Assembly (NCBI GenBank): GCA_017480445.1
Contig: JAFVAO010000016.1
Location: forward strand, 1-46,398
From: Lachnospiraceae bacterium
GTDB taxonomy: Bacteria > Bacillota > Clostridia > Lachnospirales > Lachnospiraceae
Reading direction: 5' to 3'
DNA: 46,398 nt
Under the pieces are notes generated by a model, which was given only the letters and a program-made list of their open reading frames with translations, had not been told where the DNA came from and did not search any database. Both the position numbers and the translations under genes were made by a program. This document shows, piece by piece, positions 11,039 to 21,224 of the stretch; position 1 is the stretch's first letter, and each line of letters opens with the position of its first letter.

Positions 11039-14000
11039 TTAGTATATAACGTACAAGTGATCATCTGTGGAACGCATCAGTTTGTAGGAACCTGACCAGG
11101 ACTTGTTGCCGCCGGTCTGGAACGTTACCTTTACTTTTGCAGTCACAAAGTCACTGCTGGTGATGGTTCTCGAAGAAATGGAACCGGAAGCCTTCTTGGT
11201 CGTAGGCTTGCTGGGCATGATGGTAAAGGAACTGCCGCCATAGGAACAGCTGACGATATTTTTCGGACTGGATACGTTCACTGTGTAGGCGGAGAGGCTT
11301 ACCTTATTGCCGTTATCAAATACAACCCAAGGAGTGAATGTGCCATAATATGAGGAGTAGGTCACACCGTATTGTTTGATCTTCCGCAGAACAGTGATTT
11401 CATACTCTGCTTTCACATTGCTGCCGTCTGTCGCTTCTGCAATGACAATGGCAGTGGTGCTGTTGCCGGTTGCGCTGCCCATAGACAGAGCCTTCACCAC
11501 GCCGGAGGAGGAGACAGAAATAATCTTCTCATATCCGGACTTCACAGACCATTTGATCTTGGTATTGGCAGGTTTGCCAAAGCTTGTGTTGATCTTTGTA
11601 CCCAGCTTTACCGTGGTGCCGACGGAGATAACGCCTTCGTTGTCTGTCGCGGGAACGATATCCAGTCGGGACATGGGAGCGGATACTGTCACGGCACAGG
11701 TTGCCTTTTTGCCATTGGCAGCGAGGCAGGTAATGGTTGTCTTGCCGCAGGAGACAGCGGTCACCACGCCGGAAGCGTTGACAGTGGCAATGCCGGGTGC
11801 ACTGCTGCTGTAGGTCACAGCGGAAGCATCGCCGCCGGTTACAGTTGCCTTCAGGGTTGCGCTGGTCGGCGCATTGGAGTAGCCCTTGGTTGTGAACAGC
11901 GTCAGGCTCTTCTGATCCAGAGAAACACTCTTGATGGTATCCGCATAAATGATGATTGCCCAAGATGTACTCATGCCGGAGCCGTCGGTCGCTGTTGCGG
12001 TGACGGTTACTCTGGTGCCCGCTGCCAGACTCTTGTCTGCGGTCACTTTACCATTCTTTACAGCCACCTTCTCATTGTTTGAAGTCCATTCCACGGTCTT
12101 TTTCGCAGCCTTGGCGGGCAGTACAGTTGCCTTCAGAGAGATGCTCTTTCCTGCAGTCATCTTGGTAGGACCAGAGAGTGTAATAGAGGTCACGGGCTCT
12201 CCCACAGTGAGTTTGCATACAGCAGACTTGCCGCTGCCGTCATTTGCCGCAACACGGATCTCTGCCTTACCAATCGCCTTGGCGGTTACCATACCTGCTG
12301 CGGTTACAGTGGCAACAGAAGTGTCGCTGCTGCTCCATACCAGACCGGAAGTGCTGCCTGTCTTGCCGTCCTTATTGGTCACAGTCAGACCAGTGCCTAG
12401 AGAAGCAGTCTTGCCGGGGATCAGTGAAAGACTTGTATTACCCTTTGCCAACGCAATGGACTTGATGGTGGCTGCATCTGCAGGTTTCACGGTTATGGTA
12501 AAGCCGGCTGTCCTGGTAACAGCAGTTCTGTTCTTGTCGGTGGTCGTTGCGCTGGCGGTCACGGTGTAGCTGCCGTCGGTAGCTGTCTTGGCAACGCTGA
12601 CTTTACCGCTTGCGCTGACTGTGACGCCTTTATCTGCGGGAGCCACACTCCAGGTGGTCTTCACAGGGATTGCATAGGAGGGTGTCACCGTCGCTTTGAG
12701 GGTCAGACTGCCGCCCGGTACAACGCTGTTGCAGCCGTTTGCGGAAGCGATGGTCAAAGCGGTGGGATTGGGTTTAAAGGTATAAGTAGCGCTGGCAACC
12801 TTACTGGTCTTACCGGTCGTCAGGTTTACGGTGATCGCCTTCAGGGTAACGGACTTTGCGTTTCCGATAGTGATCGCGCCGGTATATCTGGTACCGTTGG
12901 TGATCGCACCGTTTTTAAAGGAGGGCGTCTTGCCGTCCGTGCTGTAGAATGCAGCGCATCCCGCTGGAATACCGGAGATGGTGATGCTTGCGGTAAGGCT
13001 GCTGTATTCTGTCTTGTTGGCTGCGCTGAATATCGGTGCAGCGGGTACTGCATCCGCCGTAGCGGGGGTGATGCCGAATACCTTGGGCAGATAGGTGGTT
13101 CCTGCACCCATGCCTGCGGAACCGGACTTGACTGCGTTCTTCTTCATGACGCTCACGAGCGCGTCAACTCTCTTGGCACCGGTTTTTCCCTGCAATTCGG
13201 GAATCGTTCCTGCACCGGAGAGGATGACAGCAGCTGTACCGGTTGCCACGGGACATGCCATACTGGTACCGGACATAAAGGTATAGCTGCTGGCACCGCT
13301 GTTGTAAGTGGAGTAGATATCCAGACCGGGGAAGGCCAGATCCACTTCCGCATTGTAGTTGGAGAAATTCGTCTTTTTGCCGTCCTGCTTTAACGCTCCG
13401 ACCGATACAACGTTTTTGTAGGAAGCGGGGTAGGACAGGGTATTGGCACATTCGTTGCCGGCTGCGGCAAATACGGTGATACCGGCATTGTAAACGCTCT
13501 GCAGTGCCGCGTTCTCAGCATCACTGAAGTTGGGACCGCCGAGACTCATATTGATGACGTCCACCTTATCGGAGATAGCGCGGTTCAATGCACGAATCGT
13601 CGCTGCGGAATCTACACTGCCCTTGGAGTCTGCCACACTGTACACGTACAGACTTGCGGAGGGTGCTACACCTGCGCCGCCCTTGCCATTATTGGCGGTT
13701 GCGGCAGCGATACCGGATACGTGGGTACCGTGACCGTTGGGATCCGTGGTCGTGGCAGCAGCAGTGGTACCGGACATGTTCAGGTTCTGCTTGATCTGGC
13801 TCTTGATGTCCTCCTGGGAGCTGAGCGCACCGGAGTCCACGATACCGATCTTGACACCCTGTCCCTTGTAACCGGCATCCCATACATATTTGTCGCCGAC
13901 TGACTCGTGGAACCACTGATAGCCAGCGTTATTCTCAGCCAGTGCGGGGTCATTGTAGGTTGCGCTGAAATATCTGTAATAGTTGGGCCATACGGCGGGG

Positions 14001-14599
14001 AGATTGTAGGCGGGGTCGGCGGATGCCAGAACAGCCTGCACTACGGTTCTGTTTGCGGGCAGCATAACGACTGCAACGCCGTCAAAATAGCTCTCCAGCG
14101 TACCGTCGAAGCCCTCTGCTACCAGCTGTGCCTCTTCCTCGCTGTCTGTCAGGAAAATGACTTCGCCGGGAACATACAGATCGTTGCCTGTCTCATAATC
14201 CAGATTGTCCGTGAAGGTTGAGATCTCACCGGTATATTCAGCCAGTGTCTGCTTGTCAGCCAGCTGCTGCGCAGAGAGTACATAGTCCTCGCCCAATCCG
14301 GTGAAGAGCGGCTGTGCGGGGGCTGCGGGTACATTGCCGTCGGATACATCGCTTGCGGACACATCGCCCGCGGAGATATCCTCTGCGGTGACATCGTTTA
14401 CGGATACGTCCCCTTCGGATACGTCGCTGTTTACATCCGTACCGTCCGAGGTGTCATCGGCAACGGTCATGATGATCTGCGTATCGTCTGCGGCAGGCTC
14501 GGCCAATACGGTCAGACCGGCGCTGTTGAAGACCAGAGACGCAGCCATGATCACGGACAGCAGCTTGGTTTTCCTGAGTCTTTTCATTGCTGGTTTCAT
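11039..14599 (-). CDS. secreted subtilisin-like serine protease (S8) with chitobiase-type and Ig-like domains
   Basis: An 1186-residue exported protease. Residues 1-33 are a signal peptide (KRLRKTK, hydrophobic core, VLA). Residues 50-92 are an Asp/Ser/Val repeat (DVS units). Residues about 143-212 look like the propeptide, and 245-460 are the S8 catalytic domain with D255 (IVDSG), H290 (GHGTHVSG), oxyanion N382 and S446 (SGTSMACP). After it comes a chitobiase C-terminal-like module (about 530-600: AAFYSTDGKTP) and several bacterial Ig-like (Big_2) domains. No LPXTG or S-layer anchor is evident. The ATG at 14599 is set by GGGAGG upstream. It is 18 bases downstream of the small propeptide-like gene and surely shares its transcript. 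Confidence 0.95.
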   Translation of the reverse strand: MKPAMKRLRKTKLLSVIMAASLVFNSAGLTVLAEPAADDTQIIMTVADDTSDGTDVNSDVSEGDVSVNDVTAEDISAGDVSASDVSDGNVPAAPAQPLFTGLGEDYVLSAQQLADKQTLAEYTGEISTFTDNLDYETGNDLYVPGEVIFLTDSEEEAQLVAEGFDGTLESYFDGVAVVMLPANRTVVQAVLASADPAYNLPAVWPNYYRYFSATYNDPALAENNAGYQWFHESVGDKYVWDAGYKGQGVKIGIVDSGALSSQEDIKSQIKQNLNMSGTTAAATTTDPNGHGTHVSGIAAATANNGKGGAGVAPSASLYVYSVADSKGSVDSAATIRALNRAISDKVDVINMSLGGPNFSDAENAALQSVYNAGITVFAAAGNECANTLSYPASYKNVVSVGALKQDGKKTNFSNYNAEVDLAFPGLDIYSTYNSGASSYTFMSGTSMACPVATGTAAVILSGAGTIPELQGKTGAKRVDALVSVMKKNAVKSGSAGMGAGTTYLPKVFGITPATADAVPAAPIFSAANKTEYSSLTASITISGIPAGCAAFYSTDGKTPSFKNGAITNGTRYTGAITIGNAKSVTLKAITVNLTTGKTSKVASATYTFKPNPTALTIASANGCNSVVPGGSLTLKATVTPSYAIPVKTTWSVAPADKGVTVSASGKVSVAKTATDGSYTVTASATTTDKNRTAVTRTAGFTITVKPADAATIKSIALAKGNTSLSLIPGKTASLGTGLTVTNKDGKTGSTSGLVWSSSDTSVATVTAAGMVTAKAIGKAEIRVAANDGSGKSAVCKLTVGEPVTSITLSGPTKMTAGKSISLKATVLPAKAAKKTVEWTSNNEKVAVKNGKVTADKSLAAGTRVTVTATATDGSGMSTSWAIIIYADTIKSVSLDQKSLTLFTTKGYSNAPTSATLKATVTGGDASAVTYSSSAPGIATVNASGVVTAVSCGKTTITCLAANGKKATCAVTVSAPMSRLDIVPATDNEGVISVGTTVKLGTKINTSFGKPANTKIKWSVKSGYEKIISVSSSGVVKALSMGSATGNSTTAIVIAEATDGSNVKAEYEITVLRKIKQYGVTYSSYYGTFTPWVVFDNGNKVSLSAYTVNVSSPKNIVSCSYGGSSFTIMPSKPTTKKASGSISSRTITSSDFVTAKVKVTFQTGGNKSWSGSYKLMRSTDDHLYVIY

Positions 14600-14617: not shown

Positions 14618-14875
14618 TCATTCCGCATAAAGCGTTCGCACACGCTTGGGCTCTAATGCGGGATAACCGTTTTGCGCGCCAAGCTCTGAGAGCACTAACA
14701 GATCCCTAGTCGTGGAATAGACCGCGACCCCGTCGAAAAAGGACACCAGATCGATTCCGTACAGGCGGGCAGTCTCCTCCGCTTCCCCCTGTGTGGAAAC
14801 CAATGCGATCAGCTCCTGCGCCTGATTACCTGGCGATTCCGCTAAGTGCAATTCCATGATTTCCTTTTTCCTCAT
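14618..14875 (-). CDS. free-standing subtilase-propeptide-like small protein
   Basis: An 85-residue protein with no signal peptide. Residues 21-80 align by eye to residues 145-210 of the protease encoded 18 bases downstream. ELIAL/EVIFL and SFFDGVAV/SYFDGVAV match, and both continue into a Pro-Ala-containing stretch and an aromatic/basic end. It therefore appears to be a detached copy of the protease propeptide (an I9-like intramolecular chaperone/inhibitor). AGGAGG lies seven bases before the ATG at 14875. A cytoplasmic inhibitor role is an inference; propeptide-like inhibitors are known in other subtilase systems. It could also be a decayed duplicate, but the intact frame and strong ribosome site argue against that. 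Confidence 0.8.
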   Translation of the reverse strand: MRKKEIMELHLAESPGNQAQELIALVSTQGEAEETARLYGIDLVSFFDGVAVYSTTRDLLVLSELGAQNGYPALEPKRVRTLYAE

Positions 14876-15019
14876 CCGTCAACCTCCTGAAATCAGTGGC
14901 GTGCGTGTGACAAAAATATAAAAAATGCATTAAAAAGGTATAAAAAAATAAATCATTTTCACTATATCATAAACAGAAGGGAATTTCTAGTGGGCAAAGC
15001 GACAACTTTCCTTTTTTTA

Positions 15020-15048
15020 TTGCGGAAAAGCTGTGAATAATGCATAAT
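15020..15048 (+). promoter_or_regulatory. possible sigma-A promoter of sigI-rsgI
   Basis: TTGCGG at 15020-15025 and CATAAT at 15043-15048 are 17 bases apart. The start would lie near 15055 with a very short leader to GGGAGG. No C-rich -35 / CGAA pair typical of SigI autoregulation is seen in 14876-15067. The rest of this 192-base divergent gap is AT-rich with no other clear feature. Confidence 0.35.
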
Positions 15049-15067
15049 ACAGGTACGAGGGAGGCGT

Positions 15068-15730
15068 TTGGATATGCCGGAGGATACATCGCGGGAGGCG
15101 CTCAGAGCGCAGCAGGACCCGGTTTTTTTCAATACATTCATAGAGAAAAATAAGCGTTTCATGATGTCCTGTGCATATCGGGCGGCGGGGCGCTTTATCA
15201 CGGAGAGCGACGACGAATGGTCGGTGACAATGATTGCTTTTTCTGAGGCAGTGAAGTCCTATGACATAGAAAAGGGCGATTTCAACGCGTTTGCGGCGCT
15301 GGTGATCCGGCGCAGGCTGCAGGATCATTTCAAGGCGCATGTCAGGTACCGGCAGGAGGTTCCGCTGGATCCGGACGATGAAACCATTCCGGCGGAGACG
15401 CCGCAGACTGCCGTAAGGGATGAGATCGAGGCGATGCAGCAGGTGCTGGCGGCCTATGGCTTCTCCTTTTTTGATCTGGTGAAATGCTCGCCCAAGGCGG
15501 GCAAAACCAAGGCGGCCTGTGCCGAGGCGGTCCGTTGTCTTGTAGCGGAGGAGGCGCTTGCGGCTAAAATGCGGGATACCCGCACGCTGCCGGCAACGGA
15601 GATCAAAAAACGTGTCGGCGTACCCCAAAAAATTTTGGAGCGCCATCGAAAATATATAATAGCAGCAGCAGAGATCCTACAGGGAGATTTTCCTCTGCTG
15701 GCGGAGTACATAGCGTATATCAGGCAATGA
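15068..15730 (+). CDS. sigI: RNA polymerase sigma factor SigI
   Basis: A 220-residue sigma-70 family protein of the SigI type. The N-terminal region-2-like segment includes FIEKNKRFMMSCAYR and DEWSVTMIAFSEAVKSYD, and FNAFAALVIRRRLQDHFK continues it. The C-terminal half (FFDLVKCSPKAGKT, GVPQKILERHRKYI) is the SigI-specific DNA-binding part instead of a standard region 4. Such factors respond to heat, cell-wall stress or, in cellulolytic clostridia, extracellular polysaccharide through their RsgI partners. The TTG at 15068 or the ATG at 15074 could be the start; GGGAGG suits both. rsgI follows after 10 bases. Confidence 0.93.
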   Translation: MDMPEDTSREALRAQQDPVFFNTFIEKNKRFMMSCAYRAAGRFITESDDEWSVTMIAFSEAVKSYDIEKGDFNAFAALVIRRRLQDHFKAHVRYRQEVPLDPDDETIPAETPQTAVRDEIEAMQQVLAAYGFSFFDLVKCSPKAGKTKAACAEAVRCLVAEEALAAKMRDTRTLPATEIKKRVGVPQKILERHRKYIIAAAEILQGDFPLLAEYIAYIRQ

Positions 15731-15740
15731 GGGTGATGCG

Positions 15741-16997
15741 ATGAAAGCAGTGGTTTTGGAGATTAAAGGGGGCGTGGCTGCCGTTTTGAAGGAAGACGGG
15801 ACGGTGGGAACGACCAGACAAATATGTGCGGTGGGAGACACGATCGAGTTGAAGGATACGCCCGCCTGGCGGTTTGAGAAGCTGAGCTATGGAAAGCTGC
15901 GGTATGCGGCGGCTGCCGTGGCGGCGGCGCTGTTTCTGACGACAATGGGGGGGACATATATGACGGTCTCTGCGTGTTCCTATGTGTCCGTCGATGTGAA
16001 TCCTTCGCTGGAATTTGCACTCAACCGGTTCAACCGTGTGGTCCAAGTCACGGCAGTGAATGAAGATGCGAACCGGCTGGTGGAGGATCTGAACGAAGAA
16101 ACGGTGCGGAATGACACACTTTCTGAGGCGCTGACCAAGACGATCTCACTTCTGGAGGGGTACGGTTATCTGGACGGAGAGGCAGACTATATGCTGTTAA
16201 ATATTGCCTCTGATGATGCGGCGCGCTCGGACAGACTGCAGACGGAGGCGGAGGCAGCGCTCAGTGAGGTTACGTATTTTGTGACCGCATCGGATCGGGA
16301 GAGCCGCAGGCAGGCGCAGGCGCTCGGCATCAGCACCGGACGGTATGAAGAGATTCGCAGCATTGAGGAGTTGTCTGTATCCGGCGCAGAACAGGCGGTA
16401 GATGAGGATATCGTGAAAAAATATCAGGATGATTCGCTGTATGAGCTGCTGTCGAAGAATGGTCGTGTGCCGGAGCGCGAAACAGGATCGGAGCATCCTG
16501 ACGCGGCGGCATATCCTGCGGGCGGCACCGAACAGGAGCGGACGGACAGACCCGAAGGGGATGCTTCGGAGGAGCGACAGGATACAGAGCGCGACGCCCG
16601 GGAGCCCAGGCAGAACGCCGGCCAGGGCGCGGAAGCGGGCATCGGACAGGAGCCCGGGCAGAACGCCGGCCAGGGCACGGAAACAGGCATCGGACAGGAG
16701 CCCGGACAGAATCCGGAGCAGCGCTCAGGACAAGACCGGAACCCGAATCCGGCATCTGGTCAGGGTATGAACCCCAGCCAGAATCCGAATGGAGACGCAG
16801 GGCGGGATCCCAGTCAGGATCCCAGTCAGGATCCGAGCGAAGACGCAGGGCAGAACCCGGGTCAGGATCCGGGCGGAGACGCAGGGCAGAACCCGGGCCA
16901 GAATCCGAATGAAGACGCAGGGCAGAACCCGGGTCAGGATCAGAATGCGGACGCAGGACGGGATCCGGGTCAGAATCCGGATTCAACCGTCCGTTAA
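15741..16997 (+). CDS. rsgI: anti-sigma factor RsgI with a repetitive extracellular tail
   Basis: A 418-residue single-pass membrane protein. Residues 1-50 are the RsgI N-terminal domain that binds SigI in the cytoplasm. Residues about 55-75 are the membrane helix. Residues 80-225 form the conserved extracellular domain with SVDVNPSLEF. The Asn87-Pro88 bond corresponds to the site at which RsgI proteins are reported to self-cleave on the way to regulated proteolysis. Residues 243-418 are a Pro/Gln/Asn/Asp/Gly repeat with no recognisable carbohydrate-binding module, unlike the Clostridium thermocellum RsgIs. The tail may cross or sense the wall. The ATG has GAGGGTG upstream. It is encoded directly behind sigI, as expected for a sigma/anti-sigma pair. 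Confidence 0.93.
   Translation: MKAVVLEIKGGVAAVLKEDGTVGTTRQICAVGDTIELKDTPAWRFEKLSYGKLRYAAAAVAAALFLTTMGGTYMTVSACSYVSVDVNPSLEFALNRFNRVVQVTAVNEDANRLVEDLNEETVRNDTLSEALTKTISLLEGYGYLDGEADYMLLNIASDDAARSDRLQTEAEAALSEVTYFVTASDRESRRQAQALGISTGRYEEIRSIEELSVSGAEQAVDEDIVKKYQDDSLYELLSKNGRVPERETGSEHPDAAAYPAGGTEQERTDRPEGDASEERQDTERDAREPRQNAGQGAEAGIGQEPGQNAGQGTETGIGQEPGQNPEQRSGQDRNPNPASGQGMNPSQNPNGDAGRDPSQDPSQDPSEDAGQNPGQDPGGDAGQNPGQNPNEDAGQNPGQDQNADAGRDPGQNPDSTVR
16780..16979 (+). repeat. tandem repeats encoding the RsgI tail
   Basis: Units built on GACGCAGGGCAGAACCCGGG plus CAGGATCC/CAGAATCCG variants repeat several times in frame. They encode Asp-Ala-Gly-Gln-Asn-Pro-Gly-Gln-type units. An older, more diverged block with GQNAGQG-type units lies at about 16600-16720. 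Confidence 0.85.
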
Positions 16998-17012
16998 AAA
17001 ATTTTTTGTATT

Positions 17013-17042
17013 CCCCCCAAAATTTTCCGGAAAGCTCTCGAA
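17013..17042 (+). promoter_or_regulatory. candidate SigI promoter of the secreted beta-helix protein gene
   Basis: CCCCCCAAAA at 17013-17022 and CGAA at 17039-17042 are separated by 16 bases. A C-run followed by A at -35 and CGAA at -10 are the hallmarks reported for SigI-dependent promoters in Bacillus and Clostridium. No sigma-A hexamers compete in this 102-base gap. The position 58 bases before the start codon, directly behind sigI-rsgI, supports it. The spacing relative to the published consensus was not computed. Confidence 0.6.
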
Positions 17043-17099
17043 TTATTGATTGAACAGCAATGAGGAAGCAAATTCCCGGAAGAGAAGGAGGATACAAAC

Positions 17100-20000
17100 A
17101 TGCGGTATAGAAACAAAATGCGCCTGTTGGCCTGGCTGATGGCTGGCGTGACATGCATGGCACAACCGCTGTCGGTATTGGCACAGACGTCGGACGGCGC
17201 GGATGTAGCGGTACAGGCAGACAATGAGGCAGCGTACGATGTGTCGGTGACAACAGATGCGACAGATCTGGGATTGGTGACATCCGGCGAGGGAGCAGGG
17301 ACGGTGACGCTCACCGTAAGCGGCGGCGCAACGACGGCTACCGTTTCGGACGGCGCAGCAGGTATCACGGCGACCACAGATGCGGAGACCGGCGTGACGT
17401 TGATCGCCATTACCGCGGCCGGCAGTTATACCTTGACCGGCACGGCGAAGAATACGTATGTGACAGTAAAGAAGAGTACGACCGGTGTCAATCTGACACT
17501 GAATGGATTATCTATTGATGACAGTGGACTCGCGGCGGCGCTGGGGGAGGATGCTTCTGTGATTTCCTGTGGGAAAAATGCGGAAGTGACGTTTGTGTTA
17601 ACAGGAGAAAATACCCTGACCGGCAGCAGCACGTTCGTCAAAGAGCCCGAGGCGGTCATCAAGGCATCCACCGCGACGCTGACGATCGACGGTACCGGTA
17701 CCCTGCAGGTGACGGATAGCATGGCAGCCGATACGGATTATACCGTTGACGGAGTGAGCGTAGATCCTGCGGACGGCATATCTGCCAAGACCGGTGCGGT
17801 GTATTTTGCGGGCGGTACAGTGAAGGCTTCCGCAAACGGCAGCGCAGTCAAGGCCAAAGAAGGTACCATCACCGTAGACGGCGGTACGGTGCAAGTCTCC
17901 TACAGTGGAGATGCAGCCATCAAGGCGAAGGGCGGCACCATTCAGGTCAAGAGCGGCGTAGTGACGATCGACGAATGTTACGGTGACGGTATCAAAGGGG
18001 AAACGGTCGATATCTCCGGCGGTGAGATTACGATCGCGACGGTCTACAATCAGGCGGCAACCGGTTTTTATACAAGCGGTTCCTCCTCGACTACGCTCAA
18101 TACCCTTGTGGAAAGCGGCAGCAGCAAGACGGAGCGCGTGAATGTGGACACCGGCAGCCATAAGGGCATCAGTGCCGGAACCAAGGCGTCCACCAGAATT
18201 TATACAGATCTGCTGACTACGGATCCCACTGCGGCAGTGGAAAGTGTAGAGGCGTCCGGCGGACTGACCATCTCCGGCGGTACGATCACCGTTGATACGA
18301 CAGGTGCCGGTCTCAAGGCAAATTCGCTGAACACGAGCGGCTACACAGCGGCAGGTACCGGCGCGTATATCATCGGCGCTCCGGACGATGCGATCCATTC
18401 CAATCACAACTTAGAGATCACCGGCGGCACGATCACGGTGCGTTCCTCGGACGACGGCATCGGCGCGGCGGATACCATCACGATCACGGGAACTCCGGTC
18501 ATCGACATTGAGACCGCGTTTGAGGGCATTGAGGCCGGAACCATTTTGATCGGCACGCAGGGTGCTGCCACCGGTCCGCAGATCACGACCAACACCGTCG
18601 ATGACGGCATGAACGCGTCCTCCAAGACCGTGACGTATACATATGACAGCAGCGAAGATACGGACTGCAATTACACCAAGGTCTCCGTATCCAAGAGCAA
18701 CAACAGCTGTGTGATTTATAGCGGAAAAGTGGTGGTAAAAATTGACAGTACGAACAGTAAGAGTGTCTCGCTGCGAAACGGAAGTGCTTCATCGGTAAAA
18801 ACGATCAGCTACAAGGCGGAGGGAGACGGCATAGACTGTAACGGCACTCTGGACATCGAGGGTGGCACAGTTTACGTATTCGGTCAGTCCTCGGGCGCGA
18901 ATTCGCCGTTGGATCATGATACCGGTTTTACGCTTTCCAATCAGGCGACGGTATTGGCGGCAGGCTCCAATGACATGAGCAGCGAGAGTATTCCAGGATA
19001 TGGCACCGGCGTCTATGTGACGTATGGGAACAGTTCCTCCGGCGGTCAGGGCGGCCCCGGTGGGCAGGGTGGTCCCGGAGGACAGGGTGGCAACTCAGGA
19101 AGCAGTTCGTCCTCTCTCAGTGCGGGTTCGACCTTTACCGTGAAAAACGGCAGCACGACGGTTTTTGAAGAGACGCTGCTCTATGCGGCATCCTTTGTAT
19201 TATTTGCTTCCCCCGACCTTACGAGCGGTACGAGCTATACCTTGAGCGCGGGGAGCACCAGCACGACAGCCACAGCGGCAACACCTGCAAACAGCGGTTC
19301 GCCTTCTGTGACGGTGTCTTCTATCAGTTTGAACAAGAGTAGTCTGAGCCTTAATATGGGCAAGAGTGAGACGCTTACCGCGACGGTGAGCAGCTCCGGT
19401 TCTTCCTCCGGCAGTCAGGGCGGTCCCGGCGGCTTCGGCGGCCAAAGCAGCTCCGTGACCGTGACATGGAGTTCTTCCGATGCCTCCATTGCAGCGGTCA
19501 GCGGAAGCGGTACGGTCTATGCGAAAAAGGCGGGAACGGCTGTGATCACTGCGACAGCCGGAGACAAATCCGCGACGTGTACGGTGACAGTCAAGCCCAC
19601 CTATGCGACAGGAATTGCGCTGAGCGATGCCACGCTGACGTTAGCGGCAGGTGCCACAAAAGAATTGACGGCGACAATCACGCCGGGCTATGCGACAGAT
19701 ACCAGCGTAACATGGACATCCTCTGACACGCAGGTGGCAACGGTGACAGACGGTATGGTGACGGCTTTGCAGGCGGGAGAGACGACCATTACCGCGACGA
19801 CGAATGACGGCACCAATCTGTCCGCGACCTGTACTGTGACTGTGACAGCGGATGAATCCGAGGATCCGGAAGATCCGGGGGATGCGGAAGATCCGGAGGA
19901 CGCGGATTACAGATCCGGTCAGGACGATCAGGTTACTTCTGAGGAAGCCTCCGACAGCACCGATCAGGCAGCTGTCTACTCGGCAGAGATGGTGAAAGGT

Positions 20001-21224
20001 CAGAAATATACATTTGGCACCGGCGTCTGGACGACCAGCGACAAAACAGTGGTGGCTGTTGCGAAAAAGACCGGTGCAGCCACTGCAAAGAAGGCCGGCA
20101 CAGCGACGCTGACCAATACGGCAACCGGAGCACAGTACCGGATCACGGTTTATGAACCGGCACTTTATAAAGATTCTGCGCTGGTCAAGAAAATAATACT
20201 CCTGGCGGGGCAGAGTGACGATACCGTTTATCTGAAGAATACCGGAGACATGGCAGTCAGTTGGATTTCCTCCAACGCGTCAGTGGTTGCAGTCACCGGC
20301 GGACGCGATGCGGACAACACATCCTATGCAACCATTACCGCAGTAGGCAAAGGCAGTGCCAAGGTTTGGGCATACGTAGGCGGTAAGGCTTATACCGTTG
20401 CCGTGGTGGTAAAGGATGTCACAGCTTCCACAAAGCTTGCGGATGCAGCATCTGTTGACCTGAATGTGTTCCAGACCTACGCGCCCAAATTTACAAGCGG
20501 CTTCAAGGCGTCCGGCGCGGCATGGACGGATGAGAGCGGCAATGCCTGGGTCCAGGATGCAAAGGGCAACTGGAGCGCGCCTGAGGGTCAGACCGCATCC
20601 ATCACGATCACGAAAGCAGGCAAGATCACAGGAACGGCAGTGGGCGAGACGACTGTGAAGGGAACGGACCAGAACGGGAAAAGCATCACGCTGACCGTCC
20701 GGGTACAGGCGATCCCCGTAAAGACCGATATTTACCTGAACGTCGGACAGAAGACGACCCTGAAGCACACCTACGTGAAAAACAACAAGCTGACACCGGT
20801 TGCATGGACGACGGATACCACAGACGGTGCACAGATTGTCAGCCTGACGAACGCGGATAAGGCGAACGTCACGATCAAGGGCGAGACCGTAGGAGAGACG
20901 ATGCTTTTCTGCAGCTACAACGGCGTTACCTATGAGACCTGCGTACATGTGGAAAATCCTGCGCTTGCGGATGCCAAGACCGGTGCGAGCATCACGCCCG
21001 TCAAAGCGAATACCTACAACTACACGCTGAACCTGAAGGTGGGCGAGACATTCCGGATTTCCCAACCGGAAGTGTCCCAGACAGTAGTATTCAAAAGCAG
21101 CAAGAAAAAAGTTGCTTTCGTCAGCGAATACGGCATCATCGAAGCCCGTTCCAAGGGGAAGGCGGTGATTTCGGCGAAGGTGAATAACAAGACAGTCAAG
21201 ATCACTGTCAATGTGACAGAATAG
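17100..21224 (+). CDS. very large secreted carbohydrate-binding-type beta-helix protein with Ig-like domains
   Basis: A 1374-residue exported protein. Residues 1-29 are a signal peptide ending near VLAQT. Residues about 45-640 are repeats of the form SGGTITV / GDGIKG / DDGIGAAD, matching the parallel beta-helix family of Cthe_2159, a C. thermocellum protein reported to bind cellulose and pectin-like polymers. A Gly-rich spacer (GGQGGPGG units) follows. Then come several Big_2 Ig-like domains, one with a Gly-rich insertion, an acidic linker (DPEDPGDAEDPED) and further Ig-like modules to the C-terminus. No sortase motif or catalytic domain is visible, so binding or adhesion is more likely than catalysis. 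AAGGAGG precedes the ATG. It is probably the output of the SigI/RsgI pair just upstream. Confidence 0.88.
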   Translation: MRYRNKMRLLAWLMAGVTCMAQPLSVLAQTSDGADVAVQADNEAAYDVSVTTDATDLGLVTSGEGAGTVTLTVSGGATTATVSDGAAGITATTDAETGVTLIAITAAGSYTLTGTAKNTYVTVKKSTTGVNLTLNGLSIDDSGLAAALGEDASVISCGKNAEVTFVLTGENTLTGSSTFVKEPEAVIKASTATLTIDGTGTLQVTDSMAADTDYTVDGVSVDPADGISAKTGAVYFAGGTVKASANGSAVKAKEGTITVDGGTVQVSYSGDAAIKAKGGTIQVKSGVVTIDECYGDGIKGETVDISGGEITIATVYNQAATGFYTSGSSSTTLNTLVESGSSKTERVNVDTGSHKGISAGTKASTRIYTDLLTTDPTAAVESVEASGGLTISGGTITVDTTGAGLKANSLNTSGYTAAGTGAYIIGAPDDAIHSNHNLEITGGTITVRSSDDGIGAADTITITGTPVIDIETAFEGIEAGTILIGTQGAATGPQITTNTVDDGMNASSKTVTYTYDSSEDTDCNYTKVSVSKSNNSCVIYSGKVVVKIDSTNSKSVSLRNGSASSVKTISYKAEGDGIDCNGTLDIEGGTVYVFGQSSGANSPLDHDTGFTLSNQATVLAAGSNDMSSESIPGYGTGVYVTYGNSSSGGQGGPGGQGGPGGQGGNSGSSSSSLSAGSTFTVKNGSTTVFEETLLYAASFVLFASPDLTSGTSYTLSAGSTSTTATAATPANSGSPSVTVSSISLNKSSLSLNMGKSETLTATVSSSGSSSGSQGGPGGFGGQSSSVTVTWSSSDASIAAVSGSGTVYAKKAGTAVITATAGDKSATCTVTVKPTYATGIALSDATLTLAAGATKELTATITPGYATDTSVTWTSSDTQVATVTDGMVTALQAGETTITATTNDGTNLSATCTVTVTADESEDPEDPGDAEDPEDADYRSGQDDQVTSEEASDSTDQAAVYSAEMVKGQKYTFGTGVWTTSDKTVVAVAKKTGAATAKKAGTATLTNTATGAQYRITVYEPALYKDSALVKKIILLAGQSDDTVYLKNTGDMAVSWISSNASVVAVTGGRDADNTSYATITAVGKGSAKVWAYVGGKAYTVAVVVKDVTASTKLADAASVDLNVFQTYAPKFTSGFKASGAAWTDESGNAWVQDAKGNWSAPEGQTASITITKAGKITGTAVGETTVKGTDQNGKSITLTVRVQAIPVKTDIYLNVGQKTTLKHTYVKNNKLTPVAWTTDTTDGAQIVSLTNADKANVTIKGETVGETMLFCSYNGVTYETCVHVENPALADAKTGASITPVKANTYNYTLNLKVGETFRISQPEVSQTVVFKSSKKKVAFVSEYGIIEARSKGKAVISAKVNNKTVKITVNVTE

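What the first reader, a model, noticed from the sequence alone, without database searches (positions are those of the whole stretch)
15068..21224. SigI-RsgI pair with its own candidate SigI promoter driving a giant beta-helix surface protein
The order sigI, rsgI, C-run/CGAA promoter-like element, then a 1374-residue exported beta-helix protein suggests a self-contained sensing and adhesion module. In cellulolytic clostridia SigI/RsgI pairs control polysaccharide-related genes. Here the target appears to be directly linked and resembles the polysaccharide-binding protein Cthe_2159.
Basis: partly seen in the sequence, partly recalled or inferred. Interest (0 to 1): 0.72.

Follow-up and report, generated by a model that had tools for sequence, protein, structure and literature searches.

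The report
Sigma gene hides its own promoter
A gut-type bacterium's regulator gene sits beside a large exported protein that it probably switches on, and the part of the regulator gene coding for its DNA-reading helix appears to double as a promoter for its own inhibitor, an arrangement seen in many related bacteria.

Summary
In detail: sigI, rsgI, a C-run/CGAA element (17013-17042) and a 1374-residue exported Cthe_2159-type protein lie in that order. Comparison supports a SigI promoter: in 81 sigI loci (80 fetched plus the window), all 13 Cthe_2159-like genes whose start was held carry CCCC-N20-CGWA 80-107 bp upstream; a 14th runs off the fetched stretch.

Of 47 genes with proline there, 41 hold its key codons; usage predicts 2.7. 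Synonymous sites are fixed in the two boxes, much freer between. Loci lacking it nearly always have the element within 4.5 kb upstream (38 of 40 versus 4 of 41). A second sample replicated the codons (16 of 20; 0.73 expected) but not the exclusion (p=0.34).

Likely reading: SigI drives rsgI from inside sigI (negative feedback) and drives the exported protein. Polysaccharide sensing is unsupported: no binding module was found in RsgI, only a self-cleaving-type domain and a low-complexity tail. No transcript data exist.

The parts
15068..15730 (+). sigI, sigma-I factor (likelier start ATG 15074)
   Evidence: only match in the own genome
15623..15650 (+). embedded SigI-promoter-like element inside sigI: CCCC 15623-15626, 20-bp spacer, CGAA 15647-15650, then AATATATAATAG
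15741..16997 (+). rsgI, membrane anti-sigma factor, 418 aa
15897..15974 (+). transmembrane segment of RsgI (about residues 53-78)
   Evidence: hydrophobic stretch; no predictor run
15978..16355 (+). RsgI_M periplasmic domain, residues 80-205; VDVNPSLE with the Asn87-Pro88 motif at 15999-16004
16368..16994 (+). low-complexity, probably disordered RsgI tail, 209 residues
   Evidence: composition; no Pfam domain
17013..17042 (+). SigI-type promoter element before the exported protein: CCCCCC 17013-17018, AAAATTTT, CGAA 17039-17042
17100..21224 (+). exported 1374-aa protein: signal peptide by eye, Cthe_2159 domain (residues 102-401 plus a second stretch), two Big_2 stretches, no LPxTG

Best explanation
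This is a sigma-I/anti-sigma-I switch with two SigI-dependent promoters of the same design (CCCC, 20 bases with an A/T tract, CGAA). One, at 17013-17042, drives the adjacent exported Cthe_2159-like protein. The other lies inside the 3' coding end of sigI (15623-15650) and drives rsgI, whose start is about 90 nt downstream. RsgI holds SigI at the membrane; when its outer part is disturbed, the domain that self-cleaves at Asn87-Pro88 separates, an intramembrane protease releases the rest, and SigI is freed. Free SigI then makes the surface protein and, from within its own gene, more RsgI, so the response is self-limiting. sigI itself has no SigI-type element upstream here and is probably transcribed at a basal level. 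Shown: genes, domains, both elements, their recurrence, and nucleotide-level constraint on the embedded one. Inferred: that SigI transcribes from them, the feedback sign, self-cleavage here, the stimulus and the role of the surface protein.
For: Spacing: across 81 loci CCCC-Nk-CGWA (k 10-30) peaks at k=20 inside sigI (40; other k 0-8), within 400 bp upstream of sigI (26; others 0-5) and elsewhere on the sigI strand (41; others 7-15); no peak on the other strand (18; others 11-23). That is the spacing of the published Bacillales consensus ACCCCC--AA-15N-CGAA (passage of PMC4711584). Target: 13 of 14 Cthe_2159-like genes in these loci have it 80-107 bp upstream; the 14th (L098) runs off the fetched stretch, so its start is not held. 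Embedded copy: the six codon columns with the strongest synonymous conservation of 126 ranked are 185-188, 194 and 198 (z 18-33; median 0.93; spacer columns 189-193 z -0.6 to 5.6); 41 of 47 against 2.7 expected. Replication: 16 of 20 against 0.73 expected, other Pro and Arg columns mostly near expectation. Complementarity 38/40 against 4/41, p=4e-16. Precedents: C. thermocellum rsgI5 has a SigI6-recognised promoter in the gap after sigI5 (PMC4711584 passages); C. glutamicum rshA has a SigH-controlled promoter within sigH (PMC3489674 passages). RsgI: in 5 of 7 PDB hits the profile match starts, near the Asn-Pro motif, at residue 1 of the chain, as for cleaved chains (not checked residue by residue). 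An M50 protease is in the own genome, but also in all 14 control genomes.
Against: No transcript start, reporter or mutant. The complementarity did not replicate in the class-wide sample (4/16 against 1/14, p=0.34). The pattern alone is at chance level in the window. The z-scores treat related genes as independent. The window's element before the exported protein has TT where C. thermocellum promoters have a conserved AT. Published C. thermocellum spacing from the A-tract (13-14) is 2-3 shorter. Seven unlinked homologues with some upstream sequence held (45-1299 bases) have no element before the gene; two more run off the stretch. The two other PF14262 genes of the own genome lack it, one having a CCC-N22-CGWA nearby. 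So the link is local. The embedded box also holds TATAAT, which SigA could use. The sigma-70 scan listed no + strand promoter before sigI, so its basal promoter is not identified.
Confidence: 0.72

Rival explanations
1. The fixed codons in sigI reflect translation (a rare-codon cluster for slow folding) or protein constraint, not a promoter.
For: CCC, CGA and ATA are minority codons (mean shares 0.25, 0.09, 0.24), and the region codes for a conserved helix.
Against: AAA (mean share 0.52) is fixed too, as is third-base A before the Pro codon; Arg192 varies while codon 194 is CGA or CGT in 42 of 47; non-coding copies before sigI and target genes have the same boxes and spacing; L094, which has an upstream copy, keeps Pro (CCC) but has AAA AAG at the next codons and CGG, ATC, ATT further on.
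Confidence: 0.05
2. The embedded element is a housekeeping SigA promoter for rsgI (TATATAATA), not a SigI promoter.
For: TATAAT occurs within the conserved TATATAATA; codon 198 is ATA in 44 of 47.
Against: The strongest constraint is on CCCCRAAAA and CGW, which are SigI boxes at SigI spacing; the sigma-70 scan of window 14880-17200 listed no + strand site.
Confidence: 0.1
3. RsgI here senses a polysaccharide and the exported protein is a polysaccharide-binding adhesin, as in cellulolytic clostridia.
For: Cthe_2159 domain and homology to 4peu/4phb.
Against: No carbohydrate-binding module found in RsgI; tail of low complexity. Nothing here tests binding.
Confidence: 0.2
4. The element at 17013-17042 is a chance match and the exported protein is transcribed by read-through from rsgI or by SigA.
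For: Bare pattern at chance level in the window; only 102 bp separate the genes and the scan listed no terminator between them.
Against: 13 of 14 linked Cthe_2159-like genes carry the element at 80-107 bp, other spacings 0-1.
Confidence: 0.12

Closest known systems
Bacillus subtilis SigI-RsgI
   Same: SigI, membrane RsgI with disordered outer region, Bacillales promoter consensus ACCCCC--AA-15N-CGAA (passages of PMC4711584 and PMC10128001)
   Different: The consensus comes from promoters upstream of sigI; targets named in the passage are mreBH and lytE. The B. subtilis gene itself was not read here; in 30 unnamed phylum-sample loci no embedded element lies at the helix
Clostridium thermocellum SigI/RsgI paralogues
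   Same: SigI fold, self-cleaving periplasmic domain; rsgI5 has its own SigI-type promoter
   Different: RsgI with sensor modules; shorter A-tract spacing; rsgI5 promoter in a 97-nt intergenic gap, not inside sigI5
Corynebacterium glutamicum sigH-rshA
   Same: Anti-sigma gene driven by a promoter of its own sigma located within the sigma gene (passages)
   Different: ECF SigH; nothing in the passages seen about codon constraint or the reading helix
Cthe_2159 (PF14262; PDB 4peu, 4phb)
   Same: Same domain family
   Different: Here much longer than the 313-residue chain, with Big_2 domains and a SigI-type element

Membership tests
Sigma-I factors | Sigma region 2 plus the SigI-specific C-terminal domain | tested here: met
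   Sigma70_r2 5.5e-8; PDB SigI1 aligned over residues 22-218, whole-sequence E 1.3e-22
Sigma-I factors | Score above the curated NCBIfam SigI cut-off | tested here: not met
   TIGR02895 164.5 against 185; NF006176 168.5 against 260; a divergent member by naming rule
RsgI anti-sigma factors | Gene after sigI, one membrane segment, RsgI_M domain | tested here: met
RsgI anti-sigma factors | N-terminal SigI-binding domain | tested here: inconclusive
   no Pfam match at E 0.01; alignment profile matches RsgI1 N-terminal domain 6ivs at 0.0023
RsgI anti-sigma factors | Asn-Pro self-cleavage | not testable with these tools
   motif VDVNPSLE present; a loose motif in 48 of 78 RsgI frames found in 81 loci
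RsgI with carbohydrate sensor | C-terminal binding module | tested here: not met
   no Pfam match in the tail
Cthe_2159 family PF14262 | Domain above the gathering score | tested here: met
   75.9 against 25.8 bits
SigI-dependent promoters | C-run, A/T tract, CGWA at conserved spacing | tested here: met
SigI-dependent promoters | Transcription requires SigI | not testable with these tools
   needs reporter or start mapping

The most novel reading that the evidence does not exclude
In many Clostridia the DNA that codes for the -35-reading helix of SigI is itself a SigI promoter, so the sigma factor reads its own reading helix's gene to make its inhibitor. The position of this one element (upstream of sigI, or inside it) would set the feedback sign, and it has moved repeatedly in evolution, with a proline in the helix and minority codons kept for the promoter's sake.
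Probability: 0.7. Interest if true: 0.82.

Novelty: new variant of a known kind. Interest (0 to 1): 0.72.

Why it matters
It would be a clear case of one DNA stretch serving both as code for a DNA-reading helix and as the site that helix reads, with the feedback design readable from sequence. It also extends the likely SigI regulon in Clostridia to Cthe_2159-type surface proteins and VTC-domain proteins, and gives a marker (CCCC-N20-CGWA) for finding more.

Tried and rejected
Single-genome evidence for the promoter: rejected as insufficient. The T-tract variant has 2 hits in the own genome against 1 and 1 in the control; both lie within open stretches of 170-185 codons. Cthe_2159-like genes as general SigI targets: not supported, see the Against line. 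The first scan of unlinked homologues asked for AAA and could have missed T-tract elements; one search repeated it without that demand, with the same result. SigI as a standard part of this genus: no, 2 of 101 genomes of the genus and 53 of 397 of the family have a match. Exclusion of upstream and embedded elements as a universal rule: not replicated class-wide. Sampling: the 80 loci are the best of 371 confirmed and were found with two peptide patterns, one being LERHRKYI, which biases the amino acids but not the codons; the 30 loci are the best-scoring in 93 genomes with matches of 391 searched, without such a seed. Of 30 phylum loci only 14 were read and about half, because of strand; re-read all 30 (helix DNA printed for 29). 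Pfam saw 19 of the 27 downstream proteins listed plus one from L051. RsgI frames were found in 78 of 81 loci. The strict embedded class (41) is defined by codons (CCC at 186, CGA/CGT at 194, A next); one of them, L170, has CCCA, and 40 hits have the full CCCC-N20-CGWA.

Full report
Observation. SigI, RsgI and a Cthe_2159-type exported protein are recognised by Pfam. SigI falls below NCBIfam's SigI cut-offs but aligns with the solved SigI1 and SigI6 over almost its whole length. The genome held is 2.17 Mb and 83% complete; SigI matched once. SigI is uncommon among its kin: 2 of 101 genomes of the genus and 53 of 397 of the family have a match. The window is probably Lachnospiraceae: a same-family genome, G151, has a contig of the same 30,044 bases as a record titled Lachnospiraceae (inference).

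The element before the exported protein. Published SigI promoters have a C-rich -35 with an A-tract and CGWA at -10; the Bacillales consensus is ACCCCC--AA-15N-CGAA (passages of PMC4711584; PMC6056542), i.e. CCCC-N20-CGAA. The window has CCCC-N20-CGAA at 17015-17042. The bare pattern is at chance level in the window (3 against 2.66). With the A-tract it occurs twice in the held genome, both times in this locus, but about two are expected by base count, so comparison is needed. I fetched 80 named sigI loci (best of 371 confirmed). The spacing spectrum over 81 loci peaks at 20. Fourteen loci hold a Cthe_2159-like gene; 13 have the element 80-107 bp upstream; the 14th (L098) runs off the fetched stretch, so its start is not held. 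The profile was seeded with nine of these genes, eight chosen because they carried the element plus the window; of the five non-seeds four carry it. Of 20 proteins behind such elements scanned with Pfam (19 of the 27 listed, plus one from L051), 9 have PF14262 and 2 have VTC; the other 9 have Big_2, other or no domains. One same-family genome has sigI, rsgI, a pilin-like gene and a 43%-identical homologue with the element. Of nine homologues not next to sigI, seven have some upstream sequence held (45-1299 bases) and none shows the element before the gene; two run off the stretch.

The element inside sigI. The other genome-wide hit lies at 15623-15650, inside the coding end of sigI, 90 nt before rsgI. 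Among the 81 loci, 47 have proline at this place; 44 use CCC, and 41 have CCC with CGA or CGT at Arg194, against 2.7 expected from each locus's codon usage. Ranking 126 codon columns by synonymous conservation, the top six are 187, 188, 186, 185, 198 and 194. Columns 189-193 are much lower (z -0.6 to 5.6). Two fixed boxes around a freer spacer are what a promoter would leave. The z-values treat genes as independent, which they are not; the other columns of the same genes (median z 0.93) are the control for relatedness. The embedded consensus is TACCCCGAAAA...CGWAAATATATAATAG; non-coding copies read CCCC[AG]TTTTT...CGAAT, so the tract is on the other strand in most of those.

What the embedded DNA codes for. 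The SigI open-complex paper lists SigI1 residues H215, G216, R217, G220, N221 and R223 among those contacting the -35 major groove (passage of PMC10575876). The alignment places these opposite P186, Q187, K188, E191, R192 and R194 of the window's SigI (chain numbering is one higher than the paper's, judged from the KHRDS motif). The two boxes therefore lie in codons of residues expected to read the -35 element. This mapping is by alignment, not by structure.

Complementarity. An element with an A/T tract within 450 bp upstream is found in 24 of 40 loci without the embedded copy and in 2 of 41 with it; within 4.5 kb, where it often heads a secreted-protein gene before sigI, 38 of 40 against 4 of 41 (p=4e-16; other spacings 0-6 of 40). 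The two exceptions, L109 and L118, differ from the embedded motif by one base. On a tree of the 81 proteins the embedded-only state needs 10 changes, at least 4 forced by well-supported branches (the bootstrap had not settled). In 30 unnamed phylum-wide loci, best-scoring by the SigI model, the helix mostly reads SRKT and none has the embedded element there; three CCCC-N20-CGWA hits lie elsewhere in those genes, and 10 of 30 have one upstream.

Independent test. Thirty further loci from the class (best-scoring, from 93 genomes with matches among 391; none a duplicate by an exact 120-base check) gave 14 embedded. Codons replicate: CCC at Pro186 17 of 20 (4.2 expected), CGA/CGT at Arg194 18 of 20 (3.7), both 16 of 20 (0.73); control Pro142 7 of 20 and Pro175 3 of 20 (4.2 each), Arg192 4 of 18 (3.2), Arg82, 83 and 89 1 of 16, 3 of 16 and 4 of 18 (2.8, 2.6, 3.0). 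The complementarity does not replicate: 4 of 16 against 1 of 14, p=0.34. Several of the 16 have near-variants (TCCC, CCCA, CCTC) at the same place; more divergent SigIs may use other boxes, but that is a guess.

How it probably works. RsgI has a short N-terminal part like the SigI-binding domain (weak match), a membrane segment, an RsgI_M domain with VDVNPSLE and a long disordered-looking tail. In 5 of 7 PDB hits the profile match begins at chain residue 1 near the Asn-Pro motif. By analogy with C. thermocellum (passages of PMC12203970), separation after self-cleavage leads to intramembrane proteolysis; an M50 protease is encoded, as in all 14 control genomes. Free SigI would transcribe the surface protein and, from inside sigI, rsgI. 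Because no SigI-type element precedes this sigI, SigI would raise its inhibitor without raising itself. This sign is inferred. Read-through from the embedded promoter into the exported-protein gene is also possible.

Known and new. SigI-RsgI pairs are known. A sigma-driven anti-sigma promoter inside the sigma gene is known in C. glutamicum (PMC3489674 passages), and a SigI-type promoter just before rsgI5 in C. thermocellum. No paper in the open-licence library holds sigI and rsgI with 'internal promoter', 'negative feedback' or Lachnospiraceae; three hold them with 'synonymous' and 'promoter' (two seen in passages, the third in the listing only). Papers outside that library were not searched. 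New here, as far as these searches show: a promoter embedded in the reading-helix codons, its wide conservation at synonymous sites, and the link to Cthe_2159-type genes.

Noticed in passing
14621-14875 (-) and 11042-14599 (-): An 85-aa gene, by eye without signal peptide, resembles the pro-region of the adjacent subtilisin-like protease (32% over 68 aa, pairwise E 2e-4); it may be a stand-alone propeptide-type inhibitor. Both are divergent from sigI.
   Followed up: partly
L122, L124, L163, L164, L168: CCCC-N20-CGAA also precedes genes beginning like VTC-domain proteins (Pfam-tested in L122 and L124 only).
   Followed up: partly
L150 about 6158 (+): A 388-aa RsgI-like frame with its own CCCC-N20-CGAA lies upstream of sigI, a possible second anti-sigma gene.
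   Followed up: no
L051:7320-7952 (-): A type IV pilin-like gene (by its N-terminus) sits between rsgI and the Cthe_2159-like gene.
   Followed up: no
sigI codon column 181: Synonymous conservation is also high (z 12.5) five codons before the Pro codon, outside the two boxes; unexplained.
   Followed up: no
L116:6774-7688 (-): A secreted metallopeptidase-like protein (ATLF match above and M90 match just below the cut-off) was listed behind a CCCC-N20-CGAA element.
   Followed up: no
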